Source: a virus
Length of the DNA: 34,953 nt
Direction: 5' to 3' (one strand)
IMG/VR virus record: IMGVR_UViG_3300010373_000097
Coordinates: 1 to 34,953 of that record
Shown here: in pieces, positions 2,878 through 34,953 of the stretch
How the letters are laid out: each line of letters opens with the position of its first letter
How positions within the stretch are numbered: position 1 is the stretch's first letter
Notes under the pieces: model-generated
Told to the model about the DNA's origin: nothing
Seen by the model: the letters and a program-made list of their open reading frames with translations, nothing else
Database searches by the model: none
Position numbers and translations under genes: made by a program

Positions 2878-2948
2878 TTGAAGCCCCTCGGGGACCGGAA
2901 TCCCCATAATCTATTTAAGATCCAAAATGGTAAGGTGTCAAGCGCGTG

Positions 2949-3110: not shown

Positions 3111-3168
3111 CGTTGCCCCTAGCGGTCTAGCGACCGCTTGACTTATGTAACAAATAAAGGGAACTCGA

Positions 3169-19769: not shown

Positions 19770-19781
19770 AGGAAATTTGAC

Positions 19782-19991: not shown

Positions 19992-20000
19992 GAGGTATCT

Positions 20001-20339
20001 ATGGCACTTTGGGTAAAAGTCAAAGAAGCCGCCACCTACCCCGAGGTGAGGAAGGTCTATAAGCGCGCCGGCGGCGGTCAGGGCACCGGCCAGGTCATCG
20101 GGCAGGGCCAGTCGCAGACGACCGGCAACCCGACGAGCGCCGCGAAGGGCTTCCTTAACACCGTGAAGAAGTACGTGCAGGACGCCGCCAACGGGCTGAG
20201 TCCGACGCTTCCGTCGTGGATCCGCCTCGCTCCTGGCAGTGCACCCGGGCAGTGGCAGAACGCGATTGTCGATGTCACGGCGATTCCGGGTGTCCGGAAG
20301 CTCCGCGACAACGGCAAGTGGACCGGCTTCCCGAACTAA
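20001..20339 (+). CDS. Hypothetical protein, 112 aa
   Basis: The ATG at 20001 follows AGAGG. The protein begins MALWVKVKEAATYPEVRKVY, has a Gly/Gln-rich linker (GGGQGTGQVIGQGQSQTTG), a helix (NTVKKYVQDAANGL) and a final IPGVRKLRDNGKWTGFPN. I do not recognise the family. It sits immediately before the glycosyltransferase genes. Confidence 0.5.
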   Translation: MALWVKVKEAATYPEVRKVYKRAGGGQGTGQVIGQGQSQTTGNPTSAAKGFLNTVKKYVQDAANGLSPTLPSWIRLAPGSAPGQWQNAIVDVTAIPGVRKLRDNGKWTGFPN

Positions 20340-20351
20340 GGTAGGTGACGC

Positions 20352-21050
20352 GTGGAGAAGCGCGTCGTTACCGTTCTTCGGAGCGGCGGCGAGTATGAGC
20401 CCAAGCACGTCCTGGCGATGCAACGCCAAGTCGCGCAATGGGCGCCTGATGCAATGTACGAATGTTTGTCAGATATCGACATACCGGGCGTCAAGTGTAC
20501 ACCGCTTCGACATAGTTGGCCCGGTTGGTGGGCGAAGCTCGAGTTGTTTCGGCCTGACATCGAGGGCGGTTACCTCTACACCGATCTCGACAATGTGATC
20601 GTCGGGCCAATTGACGACATGTTCCGTACTCGGTACACGACGCAGGCCACCGGTTGGAATGCGCTGATGTATGTGCCGCGCGACGACCACGAGTTCGCGC
20701 TCAACGCCAGGAGGGCGTACCGCGAATTCAAGCTTGACCAAGACCGCGGGGCGCTTGAGACCTTCCGGCAGAAATTCAAGTCCGCCGAGCCGTTCGTCCC
20801 GTTCGGCGATGCGGGCTTCATGAATCAGTACGTGAGTGGCGAAGCGTGGGAGGAAGTCCTCCCGGGCCAAGTGGTCAACATCGTTCAGTTGATCACCCGA
20901 TGGCCGTTCACGCATCAGCAAGCGGATCCGCTGACGTATCCGTATAAGCGCCCGCCGCCGGGCACCCGCGTGGTGCTCTGTGCGAACAAGATCCGGCGCC
21001 CCTGGAAGTTGAAGCTGTTTCAGCATTTGTACGACGAGGGAGAAGTATGA
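20352..21050 (+). CDS. GT-A glycosyltransferase with DxD motif, paralogue 1
   Basis: The GTG at 20352 starts MEKRVVTVLRSGGEYEPKHV. The protein has the PGWWAKLELF motif and GGYLYTDLDNVIVGPIDD with the metal-binding DxD at D78/D80, like GT8-type or capsular glycosyltransferases. The later PFGDAGFMNQYV is typical of the acceptor-side loop. It would use a nucleotide sugar in the cytoplasm. It is homologous to the gene at 23023 (same EPKHV/HPSHV and PGWWAK motifs). The stop overlaps the epimerase ATG. Confidence 0.75.
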   Translation: MEKRVVTVLRSGGEYEPKHVLAMQRQVAQWAPDAMYECLSDIDIPGVKCTPLRHSWPGWWAKLELFRPDIEGGYLYTDLDNVIVGPIDDMFRTRYTTQATGWNALMYVPRDDHEFALNARRAYREFKLDQDRGALETFRQKFKSAEPFVPFGDAGFMNQYVSGEAWEEVLPGQVVNIVQLITRWPFTHQQADPLTYPYKRPPPGTRVVLCANKIRRPWKLKLFQHLYDEGEV

Positions 21051-21949
21051 AGATTGCAGTTACCGGCCACCTCGGCACGATCGGTCGTCCTCTGGTCAGC
21101 GCGCTGCGCGCGGCCGGTCACGAGGTGGTTGGGATCGATCTGCGGCATGACGCCGACGGCGTGCGCGCCGACATCGCGAATTTTCAACAGCTCGCACGCG
21201 CCGTGCCGCGCGGCATCGATCTGATGTATCACCTGGCTGCGGAGTTTGGCCGTCACAACGGCGAGGACTACAACCAGCAGCTGTGGCAGACCAATGCGAT
21301 CGGCACGAAGAACGTGCTGCGTCTGCAAGAGGTGAGGGGATTTAAGCTCATATTCGCCTCAAGTTCTGAGGTGTATGGCGAGCGCAAGGACACGCTGCTG
21401 ACCGAAGATCTGCCGCTGTCCCCGTTCTACCTTTCGAACGACTATGCGATCAGCAAGCTCGTCAACGAGGGGCAGATCCACAATGCGCGGCAGCAGTGGG
21501 GCAATCAGGTGATGACGCTGCGCTTCTTCAACGCCTACGGCCCCGGCGAGCATTACCACGCGTACCGCAGCGTCGTGTGCCTGTTCGCTTACCGGGCGCT
21601 CAAGGGGATCCCGTACGACGTGTACGAGGGATACCACCGGGTGTTCCAGTACGTCGATGACTTGGTCGCGACGCTGGTGCGTGCGGCCGACCGATTCCAC
21701 GACGGTCTGACGATCAACGTCGGCGGCGAGGAATACTGCTCGGTCCGCCAGCTGCACGAAGAGATTTGCAAGTACGTGCCGCAGGCGGCGTCGCTCGCAC
21801 GCTTCCTCCCCGAGGAAAAGCACAACGTCGTCAACAAGCGACCGTGCATCGCGCGGGCGTTGACGATCCTCGGGCACGACCCAACCACTCGCCTCAAGGT
21901 AGGCGTACCGAAGACGATCGACTGGTTGCGACAGACGTACGGTCTGTAA
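21047..21949 (+). CDS. NAD-dependent nucleotide-sugar epimerase/dehydratase
   Basis: The ATG at 21047 overlaps the previous TGA (ATGA). The 300-residue protein is an extended short-chain dehydrogenase: nucleotide-binding TGHLGTIG at residues 6-13, LIFASSSEVYGER with the catalytic-loop Ser, and YAISK with Tyr133 and Lys137. It fits a UDP-sugar 4-epimerase or 4,6-dehydratase, and substrate cannot be told from motifs alone. With the flanking glycosyltransferases it would make or change a sugar donor. Confidence 0.85.
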   Translation: MKIAVTGHLGTIGRPLVSALRAAGHEVVGIDLRHDADGVRADIANFQQLARAVPRGIDLMYHLAAEFGRHNGEDYNQQLWQTNAIGTKNVLRLQEVRGFKLIFASSSEVYGERKDTLLTEDLPLSPFYLSNDYAISKLVNEGQIHNARQQWGNQVMTLRFFNAYGPGEHYHAYRSVVCLFAYRALKGIPYDVYEGYHRVFQYVDDLVATLVRAADRFHDGLTINVGGEEYCSVRQLHEEICKYVPQAASLARFLPEEKHNVVNKRPCIARALTILGHDPTTRLKVGVPKTIDWLRQTYGL

Positions 21950-22659
21950 TGCGCCCGCTGTCGGTTTGCATGCCGTACTTCATGCGGCCGCGCGAACTCG
22001 CGCGTTCGCTGGCGGCATACGACAAGGTCTACCCGGACTTCGATTTCGAGTTCTCGATCTGCGATGACGGCTCGGAGATTCCGCTGCCGGAGTACGACGA
22101 CCAACGGATCAAGATCACGCGCTTGCCGATCAAGCGGCGTGCGATGAATCCGGTGGTGCCGATCAACCGCGCGGTGCGCGCATCGACCCGGGACGTCATC
22201 GTTCTGACCAACCCCGAGATAGAGCACCGCGATCGTGTGCTCGACAAGATGCTGGACGCGCTCACCGGGCCGAACGACTACGTGATGACCGGCTGCCGCG
22301 ACACCACGCGCGGCGACTGGTTCGCCGGCCCCGAGGCGCCTCGTTGCCCCGTCGGCGGTCGTAAGCCGATACCGCCCGGTACTGAATTGCATTTCGCGGT
22401 CATGTTTCATCGATCGTTGTTTGAGCGAGCCGGGGGCTTTGATGAAGAGTTCAGAGAGCTTCCAGGCTGCGACGATAACGACTGGCTGTGGAAGCTCTGG
22501 TCACTCGGTGATGTGAATTTCAAATACGTACCTGGCGTTGTATGGCATCACAAGAGCCCGCGCGGCGCCTGGACCGGATCATTGGAAAAGTCGTTCGCAC
22601 GATTGGATGCGAAGTGGGGCCATTTACCGGAGTACCAACGTGCCGCGCAGGGACGTTGA
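21949..22659 (+). CDS. GT2-type glycosyltransferase
   Basis: The ATG at 21949 overlaps the epimerase stop (TAATG); the longer frame upstream is a shadow. The GT2 pattern is clear: MRPLSVCMPYFMRPRELARS, SICDDGSEIP with the DDGS at residues 39-42, a conserved NPEIEHRD where a DxD-type site sits, and the C-terminal GFDEEFRELPG followed by CDDNDWLWKLW. It would add a sugar to a polysaccharide or protein. It sits in the sugar module between the two GT-A paralogues. Confidence 0.82.
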   Translation: MRPLSVCMPYFMRPRELARSLAAYDKVYPDFDFEFSICDDGSEIPLPEYDDQRIKITRLPIKRRAMNPVVPINRAVRASTRDVIVLTNPEIEHRDRVLDKMLDALTGPNDYVMTGCRDTTRGDWFAGPEAPRCPVGGRKPIPPGTELHFAVMFHRSLFERAGGFDEEFRELPGCDDNDWLWKLWSLGDVNFKYVPGVVWHHKSPRGAWTGSLEKSFARLDAKWGHLPEYQRAAQGR

Positions 22660-23035
22660 GAAAAAGCGGGCGTACGACAAAGCCCGCTATGCCGCTCAAG
22701 GCGAACAAGTGCGTGCGCGTAGACGGGCGGAGCACGCCGTGCGGAAGCAAGACCCGACGTACCGAATGAAGCAGCGCAACTGGACTCGCGCAGCGATGTG
22801 GCGTCGCAAGGGTATGCCCACACCCACACGGCCGGAGCCGAGTTGCTGTGAGATTTGCAAGCGGCCACCCGGTAAGCATCGACTCGCATTGGATCACGGG
22901 CATGAGTCTGGAAAATTTCGTGGGTGGCTGTGCCACAACTGCAATGTAAGTCTCGGGTTGTTCGCAGACAACCCAGCGTGGCTTGAGCGAGCCGCGCAAT
23001 ACGTACGGAGCGAAGGAGAAGCGTGCGCATCGTAA
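22640..23035 (+). CDS. Endonuclease VII-like HNH nuclease, copy 2
   Basis: The GTG at 22640 follows CGGAG and starts inside the last 20 nt of the GT2 gene; a longer upstream frame lacks support. The 131-residue protein begins MPRRDVEKKRAYDKARYAAQ (basic helix) and has CCEICKRPPGKHR zinc ligands, then LDHGHESGKFRGWLCHNCN with catalytic residues at D85-H88. It is closely similar in layout to the gene at 12552. The terminal part overlaps the glycosyltransferase start by 13 nt. Its insertion within the sugar module suggests a mobile or homing-type gene. Confidence 0.82.
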   Translation: MPRRDVEKKRAYDKARYAAQGEQVRARRRAEHAVRKQDPTYRMKQRNWTRAAMWRRKGMPTPTRPEPSCCEICKRPPGKHRLALDHGHESGKFRGWLCHNCNVSLGLFADNPAWLERAAQYVRSEGEACAS

Positions 23036-23658
23036 CAGTGTTCAACTCGCGGCCGCTCCACGGCACTCAAGAGTATCACCCGTCGCACGTGGTCGCTTTA
23101 CAAGAGCAAGTAGCGAAGTGGGCTCCCGGTGCGCAGTTCGAGTGCCTAACCGATGTCCCTATTTCAGGCGTGCCGACTCTTCCGCTCCGGCATCGGTTCC
23201 CCGGTTGGTGGGCGAAAATGGAATTGCTTTCGCCGGAAGTACCGGGCGATTTCCTATTTATGGATCTCGATACGGTTCTCACCGGACCGTTGGATGACAT
23301 TCTCGCCCAGCGCGAGCTGACGTTGCTCCGTGATTTCTATCGAGACGGAAAGAAATACAAGGAAGGTCTCGGCGGCGGGTTGATGTATCTGCCGGAGGAG
23401 TCTCGCGCCCCCGTCTGGAAATATTGGATGACGAATCCTGCGTACAACATGAGGTTGTACAGCCGAGGCGATCAGTTCTTATTCGAACGTTTCTGGCTGC
23501 AAAGCGCTAAGCGTTGGCAGGACGTAGTCCCCGGTCAAGTTGTTAGTTGGAAGGTTCATTGCGTGGGGGACATCGTTCCTCCGAACGCGCGTCTCGTGGC
23601 GTTTCATGGAAAGCCCCGGCCCTGGGGAGTGGGCAAATTTCGCGAGCTGTATAAATGA
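23023..23658 (+). CDS. GT-A glycosyltransferase with DxD motif, paralogue 2
   Basis: The GTG at 23023 starts MRIVTVFNSRPLHGTQEYHP. It has PGWWAKMELL and DFLFMDLDTVLTGPLDD with DxD at D81/D83, and ends GKPRPWGVGKFRELYK. It is a diverged copy of the gene at 20352 over the catalytic core; the first copy is about 20 residues longer. It is the last gene of the sugar module and overlaps the tail-tube gene start (ATGA). Confidence 0.75.
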   Translation: MRIVTVFNSRPLHGTQEYHPSHVVALQEQVAKWAPGAQFECLTDVPISGVPTLPLRHRFPGWWAKMELLSPEVPGDFLFMDLDTVLTGPLDDILAQRELTLLRDFYRDGKKYKEGLGGGLMYLPEESRAPVWKYWMTNPAYNMRLYSRGDQFLFERFWLQSAKRWQDVVPGQVVSWKVHCVGDIVPPNARLVAFHGKPRPWGVGKFRELYK

Positions 23659-24269
23659 CCGCACCCGCCCCGATCGTAAACCAGACGAAGCTGAGCATGT
23701 GCTCGGCGGCGCTCGTCCTGTGCGGCGAGAAGCCGATGAACTCGCTCACCGACAACCGCTATGGCGCGGCAGTCTGCGCAGCGCTCTTCGATATGGTGTA
23801 CGAGAACGAGTTGCAGAGCAATCGCTGGCGCTTCTCGTGCAAGAAGGGGCAGCTCTCACAACTGAACGTCACGCCGCCGAACGAGTGGCAGTACGTCTAT
23901 CAGCTGCCCACAGACATGCTCATCGGCACGGGCTTTTGGGGCATCGGCCCCGATCGGGCGTATGAGATCTACGGCAACGTCATGTACACCAACATGACGT
24001 CCAACCCCGGGCCGATCAATCAATCAACACCTGTACTCACGCTGGACTACCAGTTCAAGCCCGACCCTTCGACGGTTCCGTCGTACTTCTCCCTGCTCGT
24101 TACCTACGCGCTCGCGCGCGATGCGATCAAGCCGATCACCGAGTCCGACACTGCAATGACGGCGATGACGGTCAAGTACAACCGCCAGCGCTCGATTGCG
24201 ATGTTCGCCGATGCGCAGCAGCGCCCGAACCGCCAGCTGCAGCACAACCCCTTCGTTCAGGTTAGATAG
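23655..24269 (+). CDS. Tail tubular protein A (podovirus tail tube gatekeeper)
   Basis: The ATG at 23655 overlaps the glycosyltransferase stop. The 204-residue protein has the T7 gp11-like pattern: an N-terminal helical part (NQTKLSMCSAALVLCGEKPM), then NSLTDNRYGAAVCAALFDMV and LQSNRWRFSCKKGQLSQL, and a beta-rich central region with a tail. Rings of it form the top of the short tail under the portal. The stop TAG overlaps the GTG of tail tube B (TAGTG). Confidence 0.85.
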   Translation: MTAPAPIVNQTKLSMCSAALVLCGEKPMNSLTDNRYGAAVCAALFDMVYENELQSNRWRFSCKKGQLSQLNVTPPNEWQYVYQLPTDMLIGTGFWGIGPDRAYEIYGNVMYTNMTSNPGPINQSTPVLTLDYQFKPDPSTVPSYFSLLVTYALARDAIKPITESDTAMTAMTVKYNRQRSIAMFADAQQRPNRQLQHNPFVQVR

Positions 24270-26926
24270 TGGGTCAGGAGATCCAAACCCACAGCGTCCA
24301 GAACAACTTCCTCTCGGGGGTTCTGGACTCGAGGGCGCAGGGGCGTGTCGATACGAGCGCCTACATCTCGAGCATGCTCAACGGCACGAACGTCGAGATG
24401 GTGCATCTCGGCGGCGTGCAGCGTCGGCGTGGGCTCGTGCAGAAGTTCGTCGCCCCGAACCAGCTGACCGCGCTGTCCGGCACGTACACGATGCCGAACG
24501 GCGGCACGGCTTCTACGCTCAAGCAGACCTGGTGGGGCTCACTCGCAGCGGCCCCCAGCAGCACAACTACGACGACACCGCCGAATACCACAGACCCTTG
24601 GGTGGTTGTTCACGTTGATCTGGGCAGCGCGAAGAACGTGCTGTTCGCCGACGTCATCGGCTTGACGCTCGCCAGCGGCTCGAGCACTCAGTTCTGCATC
24701 CAGTACAGCACGGACGATACGAACTGGACGACGCTTGGCACAGCGCTGCCGCAGCTGGATAGCACAGCAAACTACACATACCGTCGCACGGCGGGCGTGA
24801 CGTACCCGGCCAGCTACACGACCGCGCGCTACTGGCGCCTAGCGAAGATTGGCGGCACGAATCTGACCGCCGAGAGCACGCTGACAGCCTTCACGCTGTG
24901 GGGTGATTCGGGCACGGTGTCAAGCGGACGCCTGATCCCTTTCGAAGTATCGACCGGCGAGCAGTACATGGCGGTGCTTTCCGACCGCTCAGCGATCATC
25001 ACGAACAATAGCGGCGCCATCGTCGACTATGTGGCGATGCCGTATCTGAGCTCGGATCTGGCAGCAGTAGACGCCCAGTCGAGCGCCGAGTCGATGATGG
25101 TCGTGCACCAGAACTACTACCCGCAGTTCCTGATTCGGCTGTCCTCACCGCTCGCCACGGGCGTAGCGAACGCGAACTTTTACAACTTCCAGACGTTCCT
25201 GGCGACCTTCTCGGCGATTCCGCAGATCGACTACGCGGATAGCCTGAGCCCGACGCCGACGTCGGACCTGCAGACTCTGACGTTCACCAGCGGCTGGAAC
25301 GTGGGCGACACCTTCACAGTGACGATCCAGACGGACACCACCGGTCCGATCACGTATCTGGGTGACAACCAGAACACCGCAAACGCCATCGCCACGGCCG
25401 TGCAGGCGCTCTGGGTGGTGAACGGATTCACCGGCGTGAGCTGCACGAGCACCGGCAGCTTCGGCTACACGCTGACGTTCGCTAACGATGCGGCCGCTCC
25501 GATAGGTGCGATCGCGATCACCTCGCTCAGCTCCAGCGCGACCGCAACGACGAGCGAGTCGCAGGTCGGTGTTTCCCGCCAGGAGAATGCCTGGAGTTAC
25601 ACGCGCGGCTTCCCGTCGACCGTGACGTTCTACCAAGGGCGCATGTGGTTCGGCGGGCTGCGGTCACAGCAGGAGTCGCTGCTCGGCAGCTGGGTCAACA
25701 ACATCCTGAACTTCTCGACGCAGCAGGGCCTGGACGACCAGGCAGTGTTCGTGACGATGAGCGGCGTCAATTTGAACGCCGTCGTTGGTCTCTTCCCCGC
25801 GCGCTCGTTGTGCGTGTTCACGACCGGCGGTGAGTTCCGCTTCGTCAACGACAACGGCGCTGCGATCACGCCGAGCAGCTTCCCGACGAACCAGACGCAG
25901 TACGGCACCGCGAAGCTCAAGCCCGTCATGATCGACGGGAACATCATTTTCGTTCAGCGGAACCTGAACTCGATCCGCGACTTCCAGTTCGATTACACGC
26001 AGGACCAGTTCAACTCCCTCGGCCTGTCGTCATTCGCGAGTAACCTCGTCTACAACGTACAGGACCTGGCGTCGTGGAACGGCTCGAATGACGAAGAGAT
26101 CAACCTCACCTTCGTTGTGAACGGGGTCAACTCCCGGCGTAACGCGCGGGTGAATCCGAACCCGCTGCCCGACGGCACGTGCGGTGTGTTCAACACCCGC
26201 AAGGAAGCGAGCGTTCAGGGTTGGACGTTGTGGTACAGCCCGGGTGCGAGCGGTACGGACGAGTTCGCGAACGTCGGCACTGTGGTGCAGAGCGTGTTCT
26301 TCCTGATGAACCGGACCCTGAACGGCACCGCCGCGCTCGTCTTCGAGCAGGCGACCGAGGGCACGTTCATGGACTGCAGTACGGGCTCTGTAACGCAAGC
26401 CCCGTCCAGCACGGTGAACAACCTCAACTGGCTGAACGGCATGTCGTGCCGGGTGATCGCGGATGGCTTCGTGCTCGACAACGTGACTCCAGTGAACGGC
26501 TCGGTCACGCTGACGCGGGACGGGCGTCCGTACGTTGCGACGACCTACGAGATCGGGATGAACTTCAACCCGCTCGTGACCCCGATGCCGCTGCAGACGA
26601 CGCACTGGGCCGGGGCGTACGTATCGAACCTCGCGCATAAGAAGCGCATCGTGCGCGTGTACGTGAAAGTCGCGAATACGTTGGGCCTGCAGTATTACGC
26701 GAACCCGCCGACTCCGGGCGGTGCGATTACGCCGTACACGTTCCCGACCACGCAGTTCGACACGATCAACTTCGACAGCTCTCCCGTGCCGTACAGCGGC
26801 ATCCTCGAGGTGGAAGACTCCTCGGTGTGGGATCGCGAGCAGGACAAGATCGTGAACTTCACACAGTCCGATCCGCTGCCGTTCTACCTCATGTACCTCG
26901 ACGTGCAAATCGCAGGCGACCAGTAA
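24269..26926 (+). CDS. Tail tubular protein B with inserted beta domains
   Basis: The GTG at 24269 overlaps the previous stop. The 885-residue protein begins GQEIQTHSVQNNFLSGVLDS, typical of T7 gp12-like nozzle proteins. Residues about 85-212 resemble an F5/8 type C (discoidin) domain (VVVHVDLGSAKNVLFADV, IQYSTDDTNWTTLG, ARYWRLAKIG), a carbohydrate-binding fold. Residues about 332-430 look like a second inserted beta domain (LTFTSGWNVGDTFTVTI). Relatives are about 800 residues, so the inserts fit the size. It forms the tail nozzle. Confidence 0.85.
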   Translation: MGQEIQTHSVQNNFLSGVLDSRAQGRVDTSAYISSMLNGTNVEMVHLGGVQRRRGLVQKFVAPNQLTALSGTYTMPNGGTASTLKQTWWGSLAAAPSSTTTTTPPNTTDPWVVVHVDLGSAKNVLFADVIGLTLASGSSTQFCIQYSTDDTNWTTLGTALPQLDSTANYTYRRTAGVTYPASYTTARYWRLAKIGGTNLTAESTLTAFTLWGDSGTVSSGRLIPFEVSTGEQYMAVLSDRSAIITNNSGAIVDYVAMPYLSSDLAAVDAQSSAESMMVVHQNYYPQFLIRLSSPLATGVANANFYNFQTFLATFSAIPQIDYADSLSPTPTSDLQTLTFTSGWNVGDTFTVTIQTDTTGPITYLGDNQNTANAIATAVQALWVVNGFTGVSCTSTGSFGYTLTFANDAAAPIGAIAITSLSSSATATTSESQVGVSRQENAWSYTRGFPSTVTFYQGRMWFGGLRSQQESLLGSWVNNILNFSTQQGLDDQAVFVTMSGVNLNAVVGLFPARSLCVFTTGGEFRFVNDNGAAITPSSFPTNQTQYGTAKLKPVMIDGNIIFVQRNLNSIRDFQFDYTQDQFNSLGLSSFASNLVYNVQDLASWNGSNDEEINLTFVVNGVNSRRNARVNPNPLPDGTCGVFNTRKEASVQGWTLWYSPGASGTDEFANVGTVVQSVFFLMNRTLNGTAALVFEQATEGTFMDCSTGSVTQAPSSTVNNLNWLNGMSCRVIADGFVLDNVTPVNGSVTLTRDGRPYVATTYEIGMNFNPLVTPMPLQTTHWAGAYVSNLAHKKRIVRVYVKVANTLGLQYYANPPTPGGAITPYTFPTTQFDTINFDSSPVPYSGILEVEDSSVWDREQDKIVNFTQSDPLPFYLMYLDVQIAGDQ

Positions 26927-27438
26927 TGGCATCAATTTCACTACCGACAGCGGCGATCATCGCAGCAAGCGTCAGTGCCGCCGCGGCCGGTGTTTCGGCT
27001 TACGAGTCGCGCGAGCAGGGCATCGCCACGCAGCGCATGGACCGCCAGAAGGCGACCGTCGCCAAAGAACAGGCGACGCAGCAGCAGATCAACATGCGCC
27101 AGAAGATGCTGGCGGCATTGGCTACGCAGAACGCACAGGCGGGCGTCGGAGGCATCGGCACCGGTCGCGGCACCAGCTTCGGTGCGAACGCGCTACGGCA
27201 GATCAAGCAGGCGCAGAACGATCTCCTCGTGAACAACGCCAATGAGGCGGCTCAGACTTCGCTGCTCGATGCTGCCGGAGCCAACGCGGCGGCTGCGGGC
27301 ACTGCGGGCGCGGTGGGCGATGTGCTCCAGGGAACCAGCAGCCTGTTCAAGTCAGGCGTGTTCTCGGGCAGCGGTGCTCCGTCCGCGGGCTATACGGCGG
27401 CCCAGAACACTATCGCGGCAGCAGGCGGTACGGCCTAA
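26926..27438 (+). CDS. Internal virion protein (gp14-like position), 170 aa
   Basis: The ATG at 26926 overlaps the tail tube B stop (TAATG). A short hydrophobic N-terminus (SLPTAAIIAASVSAAAAGVS) is followed by a long Gln/Ala-rich helix (ATVAKEQATQQQINMRQKML) and a Gly/Ala/Ser-rich tail. Length, composition and position after the tail tube match T7 gp14-like ejected internal proteins, which insert into the outer membrane. The assignment is positional. Confidence 0.7.
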   Translation: MASISLPTAAIIAASVSAAAAGVSAYESREQGIATQRMDRQKATVAKEQATQQQINMRQKMLAALATQNAQAGVGGIGTGRGTSFGANALRQIKQAQNDLLVNNANEAAQTSLLDAAGANAAAAGTAGAVGDVLQGTSSLFKSGVFSGSGAPSAGYTAAQNTIAAAGGTA

Positions 27439-29132
27439 TGGCTAATGAGCTGATCCCGGCACAAATCGCGAATGGCGGCACCGGCTCCGTCGGAGTGTCC
27501 GGCGTTCGCGCGCCCGACTACCGAGACGTGCAGGCCCCGGAGGGCGTGCGTACGGACTTACCAGACAACGGGGCTGCCATGCGTGCGGCTGCGCTGTCTG
27601 GGCTGTTCAAAGAATTCGAGGGAGTGAGCTCTGATGTCCTCAGTAAGACTGAACTCCAGGCGGGTACGCTCGCTGGTGCAGCCTCGGGTGCGACTGGAAG
27701 CCCGCAGTACAAAGCGGGACTCGCACGACTCACAACCTACGGGCAAGCCTTCAACAACGCCGCCACCGGCGCCTATGCGGTCGAAGCAGAGGCGCACATT
27801 GATGATACTGCGGCACGGCTTCGGGTTGAGGCAAACAATAACCCCCAGACCTTCTACGCCACCCTCACTGCCGCCCGAGACGCCGACATAAAGAACGCGC
27901 CGGCTATGGCCGTGCCGATGCTCACTGAGAAGTGGAACACGGTGCTGGCGAACGGCATGGCGGCGATCTCCGGCGATCAGGCGACCGAGCAGCGGAACCT
28001 CCAGCGCCAGACCTACAGCGTCGGCATCGATAGGCAGACGAGTCGCGTGGCGATCCTGCAAGGCTCGGCCAACCCCGAGGATCAGCTGAAGGCGCAGGAC
28101 GAGCAGGTCAAGCTCTCGCTTCTGATCGATGGCGGTAAGAACGCGGGCCTGTACAGCGAAGCCGAAGCGACGGCGATGCATAGCATTGCCGCGCGTACGA
28201 TCACGGCTCAGGTCTTCTCGACGCAGGTCGATCGTGAGCTTGCCAACCCGGATGGCGATCCGATGGCACTGGTCGATCGCTTCCGTAAGATGCATATCGA
28301 TAACCTCGCGGACCCGAATGCGCATCCGATCCTGGGTGAGGATGAGTTCAAAAAGCTCATGCAGGATGCGACGACCAAGATCCGTGAGTACCGCCTGACC
28401 GAGGAGATGGAGAGTGCGCGCGGCAAGGCGGCCGAGGCGGCGCGTCTCCAAGCGGGCGATGACAAGTACACGGAGCTTGCGCTTCGCGGTCAGCTGACCA
28501 ACAGCATGCTCGCCGATGCCGTGGCTTCACACAACCTCAAGAGTGAACGGGCGACTGCCTTGTCAGCTTGGCAGGTCAATCAGGTCAACAAGGAGCCGAA
28601 GAGTAATCCCGGCAACTATCTCAAAGCGCTGCACGATCCGGACATGCTTGATGTTGATGCGCTCGAACTGTCGTCGCGCTACAACCTCAACCAAGAAGAT
28701 ACGCTGAAGCTTTACAAAGAGCAGCAGAAGCAGATCACCGGCCTGGAGGGGACGCCCGAGTACAAGGATGCGTTCACTCAGATGAACGCGGCGCTCAAGA
28801 TCGCGCCAGGCACTCCGTCGGCGATGCTGACGGACGAGCAGAAGCTCGCGATCGTCAAAGCCAAGGCTGATTTCACCACGCGCATCAACACGGTCGATCC
28901 GGCGCACCGGCGGCAGCAGGCAGGCCCTGTCATGCAGCAGGTCATCGACGGCATCCACAAGACCGAGATGCAGAATCAGATCACTCAGCTCCAGAGCGAT
29001 AAGGACACCACGATGCGCCTCCACGGCCCCGGCGGTTCGGATAAGCAGTGGGATGCTAAGAAACTGAAGGCGTACATGGACGATAACGCTGCGCAGATCA
29101 AGGCGCTGCAGTCGCAGCTCTCGGGGAAGTAA
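27438..29132 (+). CDS. Internal virion protein (gp15-like position), 564 aa
   Basis: The ATG at 27438 overlaps the previous stop. It is almost entirely helical and charged with no membrane segment: MANELIPAQIANGGTGSVGV, a helical core (AEATAMHSIAARTITAQVFS), and a C-terminal charged end (KLKAYMDDNAAQIKALQSQ). Length and place between a gp14-like and two larger proteins fit T7 gp15, part of the ejected internal core that crosses the periplasm. The sequence itself is not recognisable as gp15, so this is by position. Confidence 0.65.
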   Translation: MANELIPAQIANGGTGSVGVSGVRAPDYRDVQAPEGVRTDLPDNGAAMRAAALSGLFKEFEGVSSDVLSKTELQAGTLAGAASGATGSPQYKAGLARLTTYGQAFNNAATGAYAVEAEAHIDDTAARLRVEANNNPQTFYATLTAARDADIKNAPAMAVPMLTEKWNTVLANGMAAISGDQATEQRNLQRQTYSVGIDRQTSRVAILQGSANPEDQLKAQDEQVKLSLLIDGGKNAGLYSEAEATAMHSIAARTITAQVFSTQVDRELANPDGDPMALVDRFRKMHIDNLADPNAHPILGEDEFKKLMQDATTKIREYRLTEEMESARGKAAEAARLQAGDDKYTELALRGQLTNSMLADAVASHNLKSERATALSAWQVNQVNKEPKSNPGNYLKALHDPDMLDVDALELSSRYNLNQEDTLKLYKEQQKQITGLEGTPEYKDAFTQMNAALKIAPGTPSAMLTDEQKLAIVKAKADFTTRINTVDPAHRRQQAGPVMQQVIDGIHKTEMQNQITQLQSDKDTTMRLHGPGGSDKQWDAKKLKAYMDDNAAQIKALQSQLSGK

Positions 29133-30842
29133 ATGGCCGTTCCTTCTGATTACGCAGCGCGAACGGCTGCCTGGAACCAGCAGTACGACCAGCAGCAGGC
29201 TGATGAAACGGCGAAAGCCCAGCAGGAACAACAGAAGGGCCAGGAGCCTTCGCTGTTGCAGCGGTTTGCATCTATCGGGCGGGTGTCCTTTCCTATGCTC
29301 GATACGGCGATTTCCGCCGCTGAGCACTTCGGCGACACGGCGTTCGGTAAATCGAAACTGGGGCGTGCCGACCGCGACGTTGCTAGTGGGTTGACCTCCG
29401 GAGCGGTAAACACGGCGGACTTTGTTCACTCTGTAGCCGACCATGTCGTGAACGTAGCGAAGGGGAGCACTACACCTAACGATGAGCTGGTGGAGGAGCA
29501 GATCTCGGGCGATAGCCGTGCCGCGGAAGATCGGATGCGTTCGCTCGAGGACCAGCCTGCCAGCAGCCCCATATGGGACCACGCCAAAGCTGCGGTTCTG
29601 GATTTCCGTGACGCGGTGGCGGTGAAGGACCCGACGCTCTCAGACAACCTGCTGCAAAGCGTTGCCCAGCTGGCGGGCCCGTTTGCTGCCTACAGTCGGG
29701 CCTTTGCAGGGTACCAAGGCATAGCCAACACGGTTGCCGCAGGCGCGGTCACCGATGCTACTGCGTTGGCGCCGAACGCGCCGCGCACGGCCGACCTGAT
29801 CGCCCTCGGGCAGCATACCGAAGGTCTGTTCGGCAAAGCGCTGCGCGCTATGGGTCCGTACGGGTTGAACGCATACATCAACTTCCTTGCGGCTGATCCG
29901 AACGACAGCGAAGCCGAAGCGCGCTTCAAGAACGTCCTAGACGGGATGAGCGCGAATCTGATCGCCGTGCCGCTAATGCACGCTGTCGGGACGACACTGA
30001 AGTACACGGCCCTCGGCACGCGCTACATGGTTGAGAACGGCGTCGGCAGCGCGGGCGATCTCGGGCCGAAGCCGCTCAGCATGCAGGAAGGGAAGGTCGG
30101 TTTTCACGGCACTCCGAACGCGCCTTTCAGTGAGTTCAATAACTCTCGAATCGGAAGCGGGCAGGGCGCGCAGTCGTTCGGGTACGGACATTACATCGCG
30201 GAAGCCGAGGGCACCGGGGAGACGTACCAAAAGTCGCTCTCTGGTCGTATGAACAACTCAGCCGCGCTTTCGGACGCGCAGTCAGCAGTAAAGCAGTTTG
30301 GCGGCGACAAGGTGCGAGCCTACCAAGAATTGACGGAGATGGCGGCCAAGGAAAAGGACGCCGGATTGCGCATGCGGATGCAGAACTCCGCTCGGATCAT
30401 CAAGAGCGGGAACGTCGACAACGGCAAGGGCAGTTTGCTGCGGGTTGAGATCGACGACAAGCACATCGCCAATATGGTCGATCTGGATAAGCCGCTCGCG
30501 AAACAGCCCGAGGTCCTCAGCAAGATCCCGATGAAGGATCAGAAGATCCTGCAGCAAGTGTTGGACGATCACGGCCAGGATCTTCAGCTCGGCGAGTTAA
30601 CGGGCAACGAATTCCGGCAGCTGATCGAGCGCGCCCACAACGAGAACTACCTACCAACGCCCGAAGGCAAGTTGTACGGCTCGGCTACGGGGAATGCAGC
30701 GGCGGATGCTTCCGAGTACCTGAGCAGCCGCGGCATTCCCGGGCACAAGTATCTCGATCGCGTTTCGCGTGTCACCGGCGAGGGCACACGCAACTACGTC
30801 GTGTTCGACGGCAAGCACATCAAGGTTCTGGGGAAGAAGTAA
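29133..30842 (+). CDS. Internal virion protein with C-terminal ADP-ribosyltransferase-like domain
   Basis: The ATG at 29133 follows GGGGAAG and abuts the previous stop. Residues 1-310 are helical virion-type sequence with a hydrophobic stretch (NLIAVPLMHAVGTTLKYTAL). From about residue 320 the protein reads VGFHGTPNAPFSEFNNSRIG, SFGYGHYIAEAEGTGETYQK and, at the end, GIPGHKYLDRVSR plus GTRNYVVFDGKHIKVLG. This is the pattern of the ART-PolyVal domain of phage polyvalent proteins, with His325 and Tyr354 as candidate NAD-site residues. Being in the ejected-protein block, it may enter the host with the DNA and ADP-ribosylate targets. Confidence 0.75.
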   Translation: MAVPSDYAARTAAWNQQYDQQQADETAKAQQEQQKGQEPSLLQRFASIGRVSFPMLDTAISAAEHFGDTAFGKSKLGRADRDVASGLTSGAVNTADFVHSVADHVVNVAKGSTTPNDELVEEQISGDSRAAEDRMRSLEDQPASSPIWDHAKAAVLDFRDAVAVKDPTLSDNLLQSVAQLAGPFAAYSRAFAGYQGIANTVAAGAVTDATALAPNAPRTADLIALGQHTEGLFGKALRAMGPYGLNAYINFLAADPNDSEAEARFKNVLDGMSANLIAVPLMHAVGTTLKYTALGTRYMVENGVGSAGDLGPKPLSMQEGKVGFHGTPNAPFSEFNNSRIGSGQGAQSFGYGHYIAEAEGTGETYQKSLSGRMNNSAALSDAQSAVKQFGGDKVRAYQELTEMAAKEKDAGLRMRMQNSARIIKSGNVDNGKGSLLRVEIDDKHIANMVDLDKPLAKQPEVLSKIPMKDQKILQQVLDDHGQDLQLGELTGNEFRQLIERAHNENYLPTPEGKLYGSATGNAAADASEYLSSRGIPGHKYLDRVSRVTGEGTRNYVVFDGKHIKVLGKK

Positions 30843-30845
30843 GCC

Positions 30846-33800
30846 ATGCCAGATTTCGGTTTAACAGAAGCGTTGGCGGCGGCCCTCAAAGCGACCGGCC
30901 GCGGGGCCGACGAAGCCGGCTCTGTGATGCGTCCTGGTGAACGTGCGCTCGCCGCGCAGGCTGCCAAGACGGGTCCGGCTGCTCCGGCCGTGCCCATCGC
31001 CTCGGCGCCCCTGGAGGCTGTAAAGCCGCCCGGTAGCATCCAGGCGCCGCAGATCAACCCGTCGGTGCCCGCGGGCGACGTGCCCGCTGCGCAGTCTCCA
31101 CAGGTCGCTGCGGCAGCCGATAACAGCGTCCCGGCGCCTGAGCCGGTTGCCCAGCAGACGGCTGATGGGATGCCGCCCTCGGGCGCTCCCGCGGCCCCAG
31201 AGACGCCTGTAGCCCCGCAGACGCCGGCTCCGACGCTGGACACGGCTGACCCGCGCAAGGCTGCCATGCCGCCGACGGAGGCCCCGGCACCGGTGGACGA
31301 CGTCAAGGCTGCGGCCACTCGCTTCGTGCAAGCGAATTTGACAGAAGTCAAGGGGTCAATCGACATGACCCACATGCCGAACGTCGACGTGATGCAGTCG
31401 CCGGACGGTATGAAGGCTGCGATTTTGCAGGTCGCGAACGACAACCGGGAGGCGATTGAAGCCTCGCGCGGTACAGCGGCGACGCACGATCAGTTGATCG
31501 GTCTGGCACAAGACCTGTCGATGGATCCGAAGCTGCTCCAGCAACGCTTCGATCAGGAGTTCGGTCCGGTCGCGGATGTCGCTTCCGGCGATCAACGACG
31601 CGCCACGATCCTTTCCGCTCGAATCATCGAGCAGAACATCACGGGCAATCTTTTAGCGCTGTCCGACAAGGTCATCAACGGCACGGCAACGCCCGACGAG
31701 ATCATCCAGTGGACGCAGCATGAGCAAGCGCTCACCGGTTGGATCACTCGCCTGGCAGGCGGCGGTGCTGAGTCCGGTCGCGATCTGAACACTTTCGGCA
31801 TTCATGTGGACGGCACGCTGGATCCCGCGGTCCGCAAGCACATCGCTGACATCATCGCGAATCAGGATCTGACGATGCAGCAGCGCGCGGCGGCGATCCG
31901 GATGGCCGGCAGCCCGAGCGGCATTGCGCAGATTACTCAAGGCTCGGCGTGGCTGCGTGGAAGTAAGTACGCCTACAACCTGCTGTCGCGAGTATTCATC
32001 AACGGAATCCTCTCGGGCACCACCGCCTTCAAGGTGCTCTGGAACAATACGATCAACCTCGGCATCAACGCGGGCGACATCGGCGTGGGCGCGACCTACG
32101 GGCACCTCGCCGCGTACCTCGGTCGCTATCCGACGGCAGAAGAGGGTGCAGCGTACGAGGATGCCATCGCGAATCTGCACGGCATGATATCGGGCGTAGC
32201 CGATGGCTTCCGGGTCGCGGGTCGGGTGCTCAAGACCGGCATCTCGCTGGACAAGGTGACGCGCGCGGCTGAGACCGGCGCGGGCGGCCTTGAAGCGAAT
32301 GCGGGCAAACCGACCACATTCGCACAGTTCTTCCCGGGGCAAGCTGATACGTTCTTCGGGCGCATCGCCAAGCGGCTCGACACGGTGGTCGATTTCCCCG
32401 GTCGCGTCGTGGCAGCCGTGGACGATCTGGATAAGACGATCGGCTACCGCGGCTATCTCACCATGATGACTATGAAGGAGATCCGCGCGCAGATGGCCGC
32501 AGGCACGCTGCTGCCAGGCGATGCCGAACAGGCTGTGCGCGAGATGATGCAGCACCCGACTCCCGAGATGGAGCAGGCGGCTGAGGACTGGGCGCACCGA
32601 CAGACCTTTCAGACGCCCTGGACTCCGGGCGGCGCCGGCGAAGCCTTCCAGACGTTCCTGAACAAGGCACCGCCGCTTCGCTTCATCTTCCCGTTCATGC
32701 GCACGGCGACGAACATTTTCAAGCAGAGCTTCGTTGAGCGCACGCCGCTGGCAGTCCTCTCGGCACGACTGCGCCAGCAGATCGCCGCGGGCGGCATGGA
32801 AGCCGACATCGCCAAGGGACGCATCGCGACCGGCACTGCCTTCACTTCCATGATGGCCTGGATGGCGATCAACGATCGCATCACCGGCGGGGCACCGAAG
32901 GACGCCAAAGAGCGAATGATGTGGGAAGCGGATGGCCGCCAGCCCTACTCGATCCGCGTGACCAATCCGATCACCGGCAAGGACGAGTGGATGTCCTACC
33001 AGTGGTTCGAGCCGATCGCATCGCTTGCCGGGGCGACGGCCGACGCGGTGAAGGTGCTTTCGTACATTCACGGCGATAGCGAGTACGACTCGCTGCAACC
33101 GCACGATGCATGGGCGAACCTTGCGATTGCACACATCGTTGGGGCCGTGATCGAGAACGTCGGCAACAAGACCTTCATGCAGGGTGCGGCCGCGTTCTCG
33201 GAGATGTACAACGATCCCAAGCGGGCGTTTGGCATGTGGGCCGATCAGATGGGCGCGAACATGATGCCCTATAGCGGACTCACCAAAGAGATCCGCAACT
33301 TCCAAGATCCGTATCTGCGTCAGGCGTACACGCTGATGGATAAGATCACGGACGACCTGCCGACCATCTACGGCAAGCTCGGCAGCAAGACGCTGAATGC
33401 CCGACTCGACTTCTTCGGTCAGCCGCGCGTTCGTCAGGGCAACAACTCGCTCCTCGGCCCGCTCACCCCGATACCGGCCTCGGATGCGAAGAACGATGCG
33501 GTGATCAAAGAGCTCGGCGATCTGATGGACAAGACGCAGAGCGTATCGATCACGATGCCGACGAAGCAGCTCGCCCTCGGTGGCAGCGGCACAGGGATCG
33601 AAGGTGGGCAGGGCATGCGCCTGAACCCCGATGAGTACAACGACTATGTGCACCTCTCGAGGAGCGAGCCGGTGTTCAAGAACGGCACGCAGACGCTGCA
33701 CGATCGTCTAGCCGAGACCTTCAAGTCGCCCACCTATCAGAGTTTGAGCCCTGCCGAGCGGCACGATGTCGTCAAGCAGATTATCAGCAGCGCCGACAAG

Positions 33801-33896
33801 ATCGGTGCGCAGCGTTTGTGGCAGATGAACGATGGTTTCCGCGAGCGCATGCAGGCATGGACCGCGGAAAAGAACCGCATCAAATACGGACAGTGA
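30846..33896 (+). CDS. Large internal virion/ejection protein (gp16-like position), 1016 aa
   Basis: The ATG at 30846 follows GGGGAAGAAG. Residues 40-150 are a Pro/Ala-rich linker. Then come a helical region, a middle part with hydrophobic segments (NLLSRVFINGILSGTTAF and NTINLGINAGDIGVGATYG), and motif PLRFIFPFMRTATNIFKQSF. The C-terminal third contains DEWMSYQWFEPIASLAG and ends in a charged helix. Length, position and the PF-RTatNIfKqs motif fit large ejected core proteins of podophages that form the transenvelope channel. No transglycosylase motif is evident. Confidence 0.7.
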   Translation: MPDFGLTEALAAALKATGRGADEAGSVMRPGERALAAQAAKTGPAAPAVPIASAPLEAVKPPGSIQAPQINPSVPAGDVPAAQSPQVAAAADNSVPAPEPVAQQTADGMPPSGAPAAPETPVAPQTPAPTLDTADPRKAAMPPTEAPAPVDDVKAAATRFVQANLTEVKGSIDMTHMPNVDVMQSPDGMKAAILQVANDNREAIEASRGTAATHDQLIGLAQDLSMDPKLLQQRFDQEFGPVADVASGDQRRATILSARIIEQNITGNLLALSDKVINGTATPDEIIQWTQHEQALTGWITRLAGGGAESGRDLNTFGIHVDGTLDPAVRKHIADIIANQDLTMQQRAAAIRMAGSPSGIAQITQGSAWLRGSKYAYNLLSRVFINGILSGTTAFKVLWNNTINLGINAGDIGVGATYGHLAAYLGRYPTAEEGAAYEDAIANLHGMISGVADGFRVAGRVLKTGISLDKVTRAAETGAGGLEANAGKPTTFAQFFPGQADTFFGRIAKRLDTVVDFPGRVVAAVDDLDKTIGYRGYLTMMTMKEIRAQMAAGTLLPGDAEQAVREMMQHPTPEMEQAAEDWAHRQTFQTPWTPGGAGEAFQTFLNKAPPLRFIFPFMRTATNIFKQSFVERTPLAVLSARLRQQIAAGGMEADIAKGRIATGTAFTSMMAWMAINDRITGGAPKDAKERMMWEADGRQPYSIRVTNPITGKDEWMSYQWFEPIASLAGATADAVKVLSYIHGDSEYDSLQPHDAWANLAIAHIVGAVIENVGNKTFMQGAAAFSEMYNDPKRAFGMWADQMGANMMPYSGLTKEIRNFQDPYLRQAYTLMDKITDDLPTIYGKLGSKTLNARLDFFGQPRVRQGNNSLLGPLTPIPASDAKNDAVIKELGDLMDKTQSVSITMPTKQLALGGSGTGIEGGQGMRLNPDEYNDYVHLSRSEPVFKNGTQTLHDRLAETFKSPTYQSLSPAERHDVVKQIISSADKIGAQRLWQMNDGFRERMQAWTAEKNRIKYGQ

Positions 33897-33907
33897 GTAT
33901 CTAATCA

Positions 33908-34953
33908 ATGGGCATCCCCGCAATCCTCAGTGACGTTCCGGCGCAGACCCCGTACGTTCAGTACATAGCGACCAGCAACCAGACGGTCTTCTCGTATCCG
34001 TTTGCGATCACGCAGGACTCAGACCTGATTGTCGTTGTCAACGGTGTTACGTTGTCAACTGACAACGGTTACACGCTGAGCGGGGTCGGCAACGATACCG
34101 GCGGGAACGTTACTTTCACTACCGGTCAGACGGCCGGCGCGATCGTCACGGTTTACCGCGACATCCCGATAGAACGTCTGACTCAGATCGCGCAGAACTC
34201 GGGCTTCTCGAGCACGGTGTTCAACGCCGAGTTCAACAACATCTACCTGCTTCTGCAGCAGCTGGAGAATCAATTTGACTTCGTGCTGACGATCCCGAAC
34301 ACGAACAATCCGGCGCCGACCGTAGTACTCACCCCCGGGTCATACGCCAACAAATACCTGGCATTCGACGGTAATGGCAACCCGACGCCTGCACAGCTCA
34401 CCTCCAGCGGTTCGATAACCGCAGCGATTTTGGGCGGACTTCTCTATCCCCAGACGGCCGCAGAAATCTCCGCGGGCGTCACCCCCTCCAACTACGCGTA
34501 CCCATCAGGTGACCCGCGCCGCTACGGTGCCGCGCTCGACGGTGTTTCCGATGACACGGGTGCGCTGACTAACTGGGCGAAGGTGGGAGGGAACCTGACA
34601 TTCCCGATCGTGGCGACTGCCTTGATCTCCGCGGCAATCCCGCTCGTCAGCAACACGACTATTACGGCTGTTAAGGGTGCGGTGATTCAGACCGCTACGC
34701 ACGACATTTCGATGTTCCAGGCGACATCGCAGAACGACATCACAATTAAAGGTCTGCACTTTAAGCAGACATCCGCAGGAACAGGAGCAAACATCGGCGG
34801 CATTGACTTGATCACATGCACCGATTGCGTGATTGAGAATTGCGAGTTCGAGGGCATGCAGTGGGCCGGCATACGGGCGAGCGGCACGGTGCGCTGCACA
34901 TTCCGCGGCAACAACATCCACGACGTGCTCGGATCGGGGCAGGACTCGGGGGA
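33908..34953 (+). CDS. Tail fibre/spike, N-terminal part (runs off the right edge)
   Basis: The frame opens at the ATG at 33908 and has no stop before the window ends, so about 348 residues are visible. The N-terminal part (residues 1-130) has IATSNQTVFSYPFAITQDSD, DNGYTLSGVGNDTGGNVTFT and VFNAEFNNIYLLLQQLENQF, the pattern of tail-fibre head-binding domains of podophages. From about residue 200, DPRRYGAALDGVSDDTGAL begins a pectate-lyase-like beta-helix (repeated short Asn/Cys/Ile turns such as CTDCVIENCEFEG). Such spikes bind or degrade host polysaccharide. Confidence 0.8.
   Translation, partial: MGIPAILSDVPAQTPYVQYIATSNQTVFSYPFAITQDSDLIVVVNGVTLSTDNGYTLSGVGNDTGGNVTFTTGQTAGAIVTVYRDIPIERLTQIAQNSGFSSTVFNAEFNNIYLLLQQLENQFDFVLTIPNTNNPAPTVVLTPGSYANKYLAFDGNGNPTPAQLTSSGSITAAILGGLLYPQTAAEISAGVTPSNYAYPSGDPRRYGAALDGVSDDTGALTNWAKVGGNLTFPIVATALISAAIPLVSNTTITAVKGAVIQTATHDISMFQATSQNDITIKGLHFKQTSAGTGANIGGIDLITCTDCVIENCEFEGMQWAGIRASGTVRCTFRGNNIHDVLGSGQDSG

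What the first reader, a model, noticed from the sequence alone, without database searches (positions are those of the whole stretch)
30100..30842. ADP-ribosyltransferase-like domain on an ejected virion protein
The C-terminal part of the third internal protein has the HGTP...GYGHYIAEA...GIPGHKYLD...GTRNYVVFD pattern of ART-PolyVal domains. Located among proteins normally ejected with the DNA, it could modify host targets at the very start of infection, before any phage gene is expressed.
Basis: partly seen in the sequence, partly recalled or inferred. Interest (0 to 1): 0.7.

Follow-up and report, generated by a model that had tools for sequence, protein, structure and literature searches.

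The report
ART-fold domain on phage ejection protein
A short-tailed phage carries, on one of the proteins it most likely injects along with its DNA, a domain built like the enzymes that attach ADP-ribose to other molecules; the domain belongs to a large, little-described branch in which the usual acidic catalytic residue is always replaced by asparagine, so its activity needs testing.

Summary
The 569-aa protein (29133-30842) has a C-terminal domain (aa ~318-569) that scores 183 bits against a profile built only from relatives; the best of 500 shuffles scores 3.9. H325 and Y354 lie on strands 1 and 2 of a confident AlphaFold model (pLDDT 90.9). 59 of 78 family members match Pfam ART-PolyVal, and the syntenic sister-phage protein passes Pfam's cut-off. 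The gene sits between the T7 gp15-like and gp16-like ejection-protein genes. Relatives carry the domain in the same slot or fused to gp16-like proteins. The closest solved structure to a compact relative is an ejection protein inside a virion, cyanophage A-4L gp27 (PDB 9K3A). Delivery with the DNA is therefore likely, though not shown here. Catalysis is less certain. The third catalytic position, E/D/Q in known H-Y-[EDQ] enzymes, is Asn in 173 of 173 members that cover it, and the Asp conserved in canonical ART-PolyVal is missing. I read it as an injected, NAD-binding ART of a distinct H-Y-(Y)-N branch, probably modifying a host macromolecule early in infection. Injected ARTs have precedents (T4 Alt, polyvalent proteins), so this is a new variant of a known kind.

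The parts
23655..24269 (+). tail tubular protein A-like (T7 gp11-like)
   Evidence: 72.5% identical to the same-position ORF of sister phage L073; upstream of phrog_376
24269..26926 (+). tail tubular protein B-like (T7 gp12-like), with N-terminal F5/8-type-C-like region
   Evidence: phrog_376 E 6e-77; F5_F8_type_C E 1e-5, below cut-off
26827..27438 (+). putative internal virion protein 1 (T7 gp14-like, 203 aa; true start probably further in, as the ORF overlaps the preceding gene)
   Evidence: phrog_418 only weak (E 0.77); 57% identical to the L073 ORF in the same slot; vir555 and L034 have phrog_418 in this slot
27438..29132 (+). putative internal virion protein 2 (T7 gp15-like slot, 564 aa)
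   Evidence: 43.5% identical to L073 ORF in the same slot; no family hit; assignment by position
29133..30842 (+). putative internal virion protein 3, 569 aa: N-terminal region (aa 1-~315) plus C-terminal ART-fold domain; ATG directly after the upstream stop, GGGGAAG before it
29133..30077 (+). N-terminal region of the 569-aa protein, found only in the sister phage (41% identity), no known domain
   Evidence: hydropathy maximum 1.28 at aa 268
30078..30839 (+). ART-fold domain (aa 316-569), H-Y-Y-N branch related to ART-PolyVal
   Evidence: AlphaFold pLDDT 90.9, pTM 0.82; BFVD hits to ART-PolyVal-like proteins; Pfam on family
30105..30107 (+). codon of His325 (strand 1, HGT)
   Evidence: H in 178 of 185 members; strand 1 in model
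30192..30194 (+). codon of Tyr354 (strand 2, GxGxY)
   Evidence: Y in 187/187; strand 2 in model
30225..30227 (+). codon of Tyr365, aligned with the second active-site tyrosine of PARPs
   Evidence: Y in 186/186; tankyrase alignments
30756..30770 (+). D542-x-x-S545-R546 motif in the turn between strands 4 and 5 (ARTT-loop position)
   Evidence: D 166/177, S 169/176, R 167/176; between strands 537-541 and 553-557 in the model
30792..30794 (+). codon of Asn554 at the start of strand 5, the position of the catalytic E/D/Q in other ARTs
   Evidence: N in 173/173; hhalign against canonical ART-PolyVal
30846..33896 (+). internal virion protein 4, 1016 aa, T7 gp16 / 'internal virion protein D'-like
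   Evidence: phrog_6651 internal virion protein E 5e-34; Desulfovibrio phage ProddE internal virion protein D E 2e-36
33908..34951 (+). start of tail fibre/spike gene (runs off the window)
   Evidence: phrog_1640 tail protein E 3e-23; Beta_helix

Best explanation
The gene encodes an extra ejection (internal virion) protein of a T7-like short-tailed phage, with an effector domain at its C-terminus. The protein is made late, packed in the head with the gp14/15/16-like proteins and expelled through the portal and tail with the DNA. Its C-terminal ART-fold domain reaches the host interior, binds NAD+ through H325, Y354 and Y365, and transfers ADP-ribose to a host macromolecule at the very start of infection, in the manner of T4 Alt but with a PARP/ART-PolyVal-type active site. 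The invariant Asn554 and the D542-x-x-S-R546 turn before strand 5, the position of the target-recognition (ARTT) loop in ARTs, replace the usual acidic residue; this would fit a mono-transferase with its own target choice. Shown here: homology, fold, conservation pattern, gene order and fusions. Inferred with good support: packaging and ejection. Inferred with moderate support: NAD+ binding. Not shown: catalysis, target, timing.
For: Homology and fold: relatives at 1e-12 to 1e-13; leave-one-out profile 183 bits against 3.9 for the best shuffle; 59/78 members hit PF18760 and the syntenic sister protein passes its cut-off, 35.6 against 31.2 bits; hhalign to canonical ART-PolyVal, probability 96-97%, E 4e-9 local; AlphaFold pLDDT 90.9; 31 BFVD matches at E<=1e-3, many named ART-PolyVal-like; a profile of the H-to-Y segment hits only PARP/tankyrase catalytic domains in the PDB, 28 of 28 hits, best E 0.36; below the top hit, the ranked PDB folds for a compact member are tankyrase/PARP, cholix, exotoxin A and other ARTs. 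Active-site constraint: H 178/185, Y 187/187, Y 186/186, N 173/173 at about 30% identity. Ejection context: gp14-like, gp15-like, ART, gp16-like, spike order with ribosome-binding sites; same order in sister L073; ART fused ahead of a gp16-like region in one polypeptide in Verrucomicrobium L149 (ART aa 2004-2248, gp16-like 2733-3228); in methanogen virus vir555 the domain lies in the large protein of the same slot; neighbours of environmental relatives are mostly terminase, portal and virion genes. The top PDB match of the compact member is 9k3a_B (Foldseek E 3.5e-6), the pre-ejectosome protein gp27 of Anabaena phage A-4L, identical to A4L_27, which has an HGT...GSGTYF motif. Iyer 2017 (PMC5512222) and its 2022 sequel (PMC9503650) argue that such ARTs are injected.
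Against: The third catalytic residue is Asn, not E/D/Q, in every member covering it, and the Asp conserved in canonical ART-PolyVal is absent. The window protein itself stays below Pfam's cut-off. The window domain's own fold search in the PDB has no significant hit, probably because of two large helical insertions. Five of 80 environmental relatives have Gln for His. No NAD+ binding, activity or virion proteomics is available. Of T7 gp16, the N-terminal part stays in the periplasm (PMC8954989), where NAD+ would not be expected, so cytoplasmic entry is an added assumption.
Confidence: 0.55

Rival explanations
1. The domain keeps the ART fold and binds NAD+ or an ADP-ribose-containing molecule but does not transfer ADP-ribose: it is a reader, a nucleotide-gated binding module or a structural part of the ejectosome.
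For: Asn instead of E/D/Q in 173/173. The related A-4L gp27 ejectosome protein has no obvious acid before its last strand (TTLVIN) and no Pfam hit, so such domains may be maintained inside virions for structure. Asn-branch and canonical ART domains often occur in one polypeptide, which would suit a division of labour.
Against: The H, Y, Y and N positions that would line the NAD pocket are nearly invariant across very diverged proteins, more than a scaffold would need. Human PARPs with I, L or Y in place of the Glu are listed as mono-ADP-ribosyltransferases (PMC7955679 table), so losing the acid need not abolish activity.
Confidence: 0.27
2. An active ART or NAD+ hydrolase whose role is counter-defence or self-modification: it modifies phage or ejectosome components, or blocks a NAD+-linked host defence, rather than taking over a host target.
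For: Iyer et al. 2022 propose that packaged ARTs may counter immune processes aimed at the packaging apparatus (PMC9503650). Many relatives lie directly beside terminase and portal genes.
Against: Nothing found singles out a phage target. No macrodomain, ADP-ribose hydrolase or other NAD+-handling partner was identified among the window proteins scanned (not every ORF was scanned).
Confidence: 0.12
3. The protein is a late-expressed cytoplasmic effector or assembly factor that is not packaged; its place among ejection genes only reflects late transcription.
For: No mass spectrometry of this virion exists. In most environmental relatives the domain is on a ~400-aa protein beside terminase or portal genes rather than among ejection genes.
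Against: Fusion to gp16-like ejection proteins in L149, and placement in the corresponding large proteins of vir555 and L047; an ART-like ejectosome protein is seen inside the A-4L virion.
Confidence: 0.06

Closest known systems
ART-PolyVal domain (Pfam PF18760), prototype in Roseovarius Plymouth podovirus 1 vRNAP (Iyer et al. 2017, PMC5512222)
   Same: Homologous; His on strand 1, Tyr on strand 2, a [NK]P motif after strand 3, strand-5 hVVF pattern; virion-linked, probably injected proteins.
   Different: About 250 aa instead of 140, with helical insertions; Asn554 instead of variable E/Q/S/T/A before strand 5; G-I-[PKR]-G instead of GYDG; an extra D-x-x-S-R turn. The window protein scores below the Pfam cut-off.
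Phage T4 Alt (head-packaged, injected ART acting on host RNA polymerase)
   Same: An ART carried in the head and injected with DNA is the model for the proposed function (PMC5512222).
   Different: Alt belongs to the R-S-E clade (same source), carries no ejectosome-slot N-terminal region and is from a contractile-tailed phage.
Anabaena phage A-4L gp27 (PDB 9K3A chain B, pre-ejectosome)
   Same: Ejection-type protein of a short-tailed phage with an HGT...GSGTYF ART-like motif near its C-terminus, encoded after two internal-protein genes and before one more; top structural match of a compact family member.
   Different: Much longer (1717 aa), no detectable sequence similarity to the window protein, and an active site more like canonical ART-PolyVal. 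I could not read its paper, so I do not know whether its authors named an ART domain.
PARP / tankyrase catalytic domains
   Same: The motif I-II segment HG[ST]...[YF]GxGlYFAE...Y matches only PARPs in the PDB, both tyrosines included.
   Different: No catalytic Glu; overall sequence and strand-2-to-3 region unrelated; matches individually not significant (best E 0.36).
T7 gp14/gp15/gp16 ejection proteins
   Same: Gene order and gp16-like downstream protein (PMC8954989).
   Different: One additional gene carrying an ART-like domain stands between the gp15-like and gp16-like genes; the gp16-like protein has a shorter N-terminal part than ProddE protein D (its aa 108 aligns with about aa 366).

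Membership tests
ART-PolyVal (PF18760) | Score above Pfam's curated cut-off (31.2 bits) | tested here: not met
   Window domain 18.1 bits, E 0.0047; sister L073 domain 35.6 bits, above cut-off
ART-PolyVal (PF18760) | Homology to the family | tested here: met
   59/78 members hit it at E<=0.01; hhalign probability 96-97% to 17 canonical members
ART-PolyVal (PF18760) | His on strand 1 and Tyr on strand 2 | tested here: met
   H325 and Y354 on the first two strands, 178/185 and 187/187 conserved
ART-PolyVal (PF18760) | Asp in strand 5 (as given by Iyer et al. 2017) | tested here: not met
   Start of strand 5 is N554, 173/173 Asn; the GYDG Asp of canonical members is P536 (P/K/R/L). D542, in the turn before strand 5, could be a shifted acid; undecided
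H-Y-[EDQ] clade of ARTs (PARP, diphtheria/cholix type) | Third catalytic residue E, D or Q | tested here: not met
   Asn in every member covering the position
H-Y-[EDQ] clade of ARTs (PARP, diphtheria/cholix type) | ART fold | tested here: met
   BFVD ART-PolyVal-like models, 31 matches at E<=1e-3; for the compact member, tankyrase, PARP, cholix, ExoA and ParT among PDB ranks 2-50, prob up to 0.97; window model alone not significant in PDB
ADP-ribosyltransferase (by activity) | NAD+-dependent transfer to a target | not testable with these tools
   No biochemistry available
Polyvalent protein (Iyer et al. 2017) | Several disparate effector domains in one polypeptide | tested here: not met
   Only the ART-like domain is recognised in the 569-aa protein; relatives in genomes are often genuine polyvalent proteins
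T7-type ejection protein | Encoded in the gp14-gp15-gp16 cluster | tested here: met
T7-type ejection protein | Present in the virion and expelled at infection | not testable with these tools
   Precedent only: A-4L gp27 in PDB 9K3A

The most novel reading that the evidence does not exclude
It would be a separate class of injected effector with its own chemistry or target, acting in the first minutes of infection across bacterial and archaeal viruses.
Probability: 0.3. Interest if true: 0.72.

Novelty: new variant of a known kind. Interest (0 to 1): 0.5.

Why it matters
T4 Alt is the main experimentally known head-packaged ART, and the wider claim that ART-type domains are injected by many phages rests largely on computation. 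This case gives a compact unit (one gene, one effector domain, a T7-like ejection cluster) in which that claim can be tested. The conserved Asn raises a sharp question: is an ART fold without its catalytic acid, but with the rest of the NAD pocket kept almost without exception, still an enzyme? The answer would apply to hundreds of environmental phages, to many prophage proteins and to a methanogen virus.

Tried and rejected
Direct Pfam, NCBIfam and PHROG scans of the full window protein gave nothing usable apart from a weak PHROG 'endolysin' profile, E 6e-4, which is itself a large protein sharing the ART-like segment. The search for related loci with the single sequence, and with the 1016-aa protein, found no relatives; the aligned family was needed. 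megablast against known phages found nothing. A 'wrong family' reading, with GP41 or ribosomal L3 as PDB matches, was rejected: those are helical low-complexity matches in the insertion region. A plasmid/conjugation origin was rejected, with no plasmid match. A transglycosylase in the missing gp16 N-terminus was looked for in ProddE and CRP-361 and not found by Pfam, so the idea that ART simply replaced a lytic domain stays untested. The main text of the phiGT1 paper does not say whether the homologous gene-5 product was seen in virions. The invariance of Y354 and D542 among IMG/VR relatives is partly built in by the search patterns; that of H325 and N554 is not.

Full report
WHAT IS THERE. 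The finding lies in the C-terminal half of a 569-aa ORF, window 29133-30842 (+). The ATG follows directly on the stop of the preceding 564-aa gene, and the next gene (1016 aa) starts three bases after the ORF ends; both starts have GGGGAAG-type ribosome-binding sites.

IS IT MORE THAN CHANCE. The full protein has no Pfam hit. tblastn against phage records gives E 1e-13 to 2e-12 for aa 324-568 in Tunturiibacter phage Tunturi_5, methanogen virus vir555 and Sulfitobacter phage phiGT1, confirmed by blastp. A profile made from the IMG/VR relatives without the window scores the window protein at 183 bits; the best of 500 shuffles scores 3.9 bits, and no other ORF of the window scores.

WHAT THE DOMAIN IS. 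59 of 78 aligned members hit ART-PolyVal (PF18760), 25 hit DUF3990, two hit PARP and one the exotoxin A catalytic domain. The window's own domain is weak at 18.1 bits against a cut-off of 31.2, but the orthologue in a sister phage passes at 35.6 bits. Profile-profile comparison with 17 canonical ART-PolyVal domains gives 96-97% probability and aligns all strands in order. AlphaFold on the 78-sequence alignment gives pLDDT 90.9, pTM 0.82. H325 lies on strand 1 and Y354 on strand 2; a long helical insertion separates strands 2 and 3 and another strands 3 and 4; strand 4 ends just before D542 and strand 5 covers aa 553-557. Foldseek finds 31 viral models at E<=1e-3, many labelled ART-PolyVal-like. 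Against solved structures the window model has no significant match. A compact member without the largest insertion (L031, pLDDT 86.4) matches first the A-4L pre-ejectosome (E 3.5e-6) and then tankyrases, cholix, exotoxin A-like toxins, PARPs and ParT. A profile of only the H-to-second-Y segment hits 28 PDB sequences at E<=10, all of them PARP or tankyrase catalytic domains; each is weak, but their uniformity is telling.

THE ACTIVE SITE. Across 216 domain hits (fragments included; 173-187 cover a given position) the residues are: H325 178/185 (6 Gln, 1 Thr), Y354 187/187, Y365 186/186, D542 166/177, S545 169/176, R546 167/176, N554 173/173. The search patterns contained Y354 and D542 for IMG/VR but not H325 or N554, so the constancy of His and Asn is not built in. 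N554 stands where H-Y-[EDQ] ARTs have their catalytic acid; the PARP1 and diphtheria-toxin positions are from general knowledge, the canonical ART-PolyVal alignment is tested. Canonical ART-PolyVal members have E, Q, S, T, A or others there and a strictly kept GYDG Asp; here that Asp is Pro, Lys, Arg or Leu. Iyer et al. 2017 define the polyvalent ARTs as H-Y-D (PMC5512222). By that definition the domain is a related but separate branch, which I call H-Y-(Y)-N. Human PARPs with I, L or Y at the third position are listed as mono-transferases and PARP13 as inactive (PMC7955679), so Asn neither proves nor excludes activity.

WHERE IT SITS. Upstream are TerL, portal, scaffold-like, capsid, tail tubular A and B; then 203, 564, 569 and 1016 aa; then a tail spike. 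The 1016-aa protein matches internal virion protein D of Desulfovibrio phage ProddE (E 2e-36) and phrog_6651. This is the T7 gp11-gp12-gp14-gp15-gp16-gp17 order with one extra gene between gp15-like and gp16-like. Ejection genes are known to be clustered this way (PMC8954989). One environmental contig, L073, keeps the entire order with 72, 68, 57, 43, 41 and 41% identity (tubular A, tubular B, 203, 564, N-part of 569, 1016) and keeps the active-site motifs. In Verrucomicrobium sp. BvORR106 (L149) an Asn-branch ART (aa 2004-2248) and a gp16-like region (2733-3228) are in one polypeptide; in L047 a gp16-like segment precedes the ART. In vir555 the ART lies in the 1974-aa protein of the same slot. 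Most other environmental relatives are ~320-480-aa proteins with the ART at the C-terminus, beside terminase, portal or head genes.

A SOLVED PRECEDENT. The top structural match, 9k3a_B, is identical to A4L_27 of Anabaena phage A-4L, described as a pre-ejectosome chain. Its C-terminal part contains SLYHGT...GEWGSGTYFSKSS, and its gene follows two internal-protein genes and precedes one more. Foldseek does not report which residues of 9k3a_B are aligned, so the link to this segment is an inference. There is no sequence similarity between A-4L and the window's ejection proteins. The paper (PNAS 2025, cited in PMC12810830) is not held here, so I cannot say whether its authors recognised an ART.

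HOW IT PROBABLY WORKS. Shown: ART fold, homology, near-invariant NAD-pocket positions, an ejection-gene context conserved in a sister phage, and fusions to a gp16-like protein. Inferred: the protein is packed with the core proteins, ejected with the DNA, and delivers the domain to the cytoplasm, where NAD+ is available; the domain then modifies a host macromolecule before or as transcription begins, as T4 Alt does. The D-x-x-S-R turn before strand 5 is where ARTs keep their target-recognition loop, so it may set the target. I give 0.95 to ART fold, 0.85 to virion protein, about 0.65 to active NAD+ chemistry and 0.55 to the whole chain.

NOVELTY. Injected ARTs are known (T4 Alt) or predicted (polyvalent proteins), and an ejectosome protein with an ART-like motif is in the PDB. 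New here are the Asn branch as a coherent, widespread group without its own model in the libraries searched, its clean placement as a dedicated gene in a T7-type ejection cluster, and the resulting question whether it is catalytic. Hence 'new variant of a known kind', interest 0.5.

Noticed in passing
window 19164-23658 (+): A block between the capsid and tail-tubular genes holds an NAD-dependent epimerase/dehydratase (21047-21949, Epimerase E 2e-40), a family-2 glycosyltransferase (21766-22659) and further uncharacterised ORFs (20352-21050, 23023-23658) that resemble each other; unusual sugar-modification cargo in a ~35 kb podovirus structural module.
   Followed up: partly
window 12552-12941 and 22538-23035 (+): Two separate recombination-endonuclease-VII (HNH type) genes flank structural genes, as mobile free-standing endonucleases often do.
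   Followed up: partly
window 3976-4635 (-): Serine recombinase (Resolvase N-terminal domain, E 1e-21), possibly a lysogeny or plasmid-like maintenance gene in an otherwise lytic-looking phage.
   Followed up: no
window 24500-24850 (+): The tail tubular protein B carries an F5/8 type C (discoidin-like) carbohydrate-binding region near its N-terminus, just below the Pfam cut-off.
   Followed up: no
L213:20116-25269 (-), C-terminal part (aa ~1420-1610 of A4L_27): Anabaena phage A-4L gp27 (PDB 9K3A chain B), titled 'Tail protein', has an ART-like HGT/GSGTYF segment; no Pfam model detects it.
   Followed up: partly
L172, L151, L138, L178, L080: Giant prophage-type ORFs carry several ART domains in tandem, mixing canonical ART-PolyVal and Asn-branch copies in one polypeptide (e.g. 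L138: three canonical plus two Asn-branch hits).
   Followed up: partly
L004:3537-9461: The vir555 protein (virus of Methanomicrobiales) has the ART domain followed by an HEIGH zinc-peptidase-like motif, a polyvalent architecture in an archaeal virus at the gp16 slot.
   Followed up: no
window 27438-30842 against L073: Between sister phages the tail tubes stay ~70% identical while the gp15-like, ART and gp16-like proteins are only ~41-43% identical, so the ejection proteins evolve much faster.
   Followed up: no
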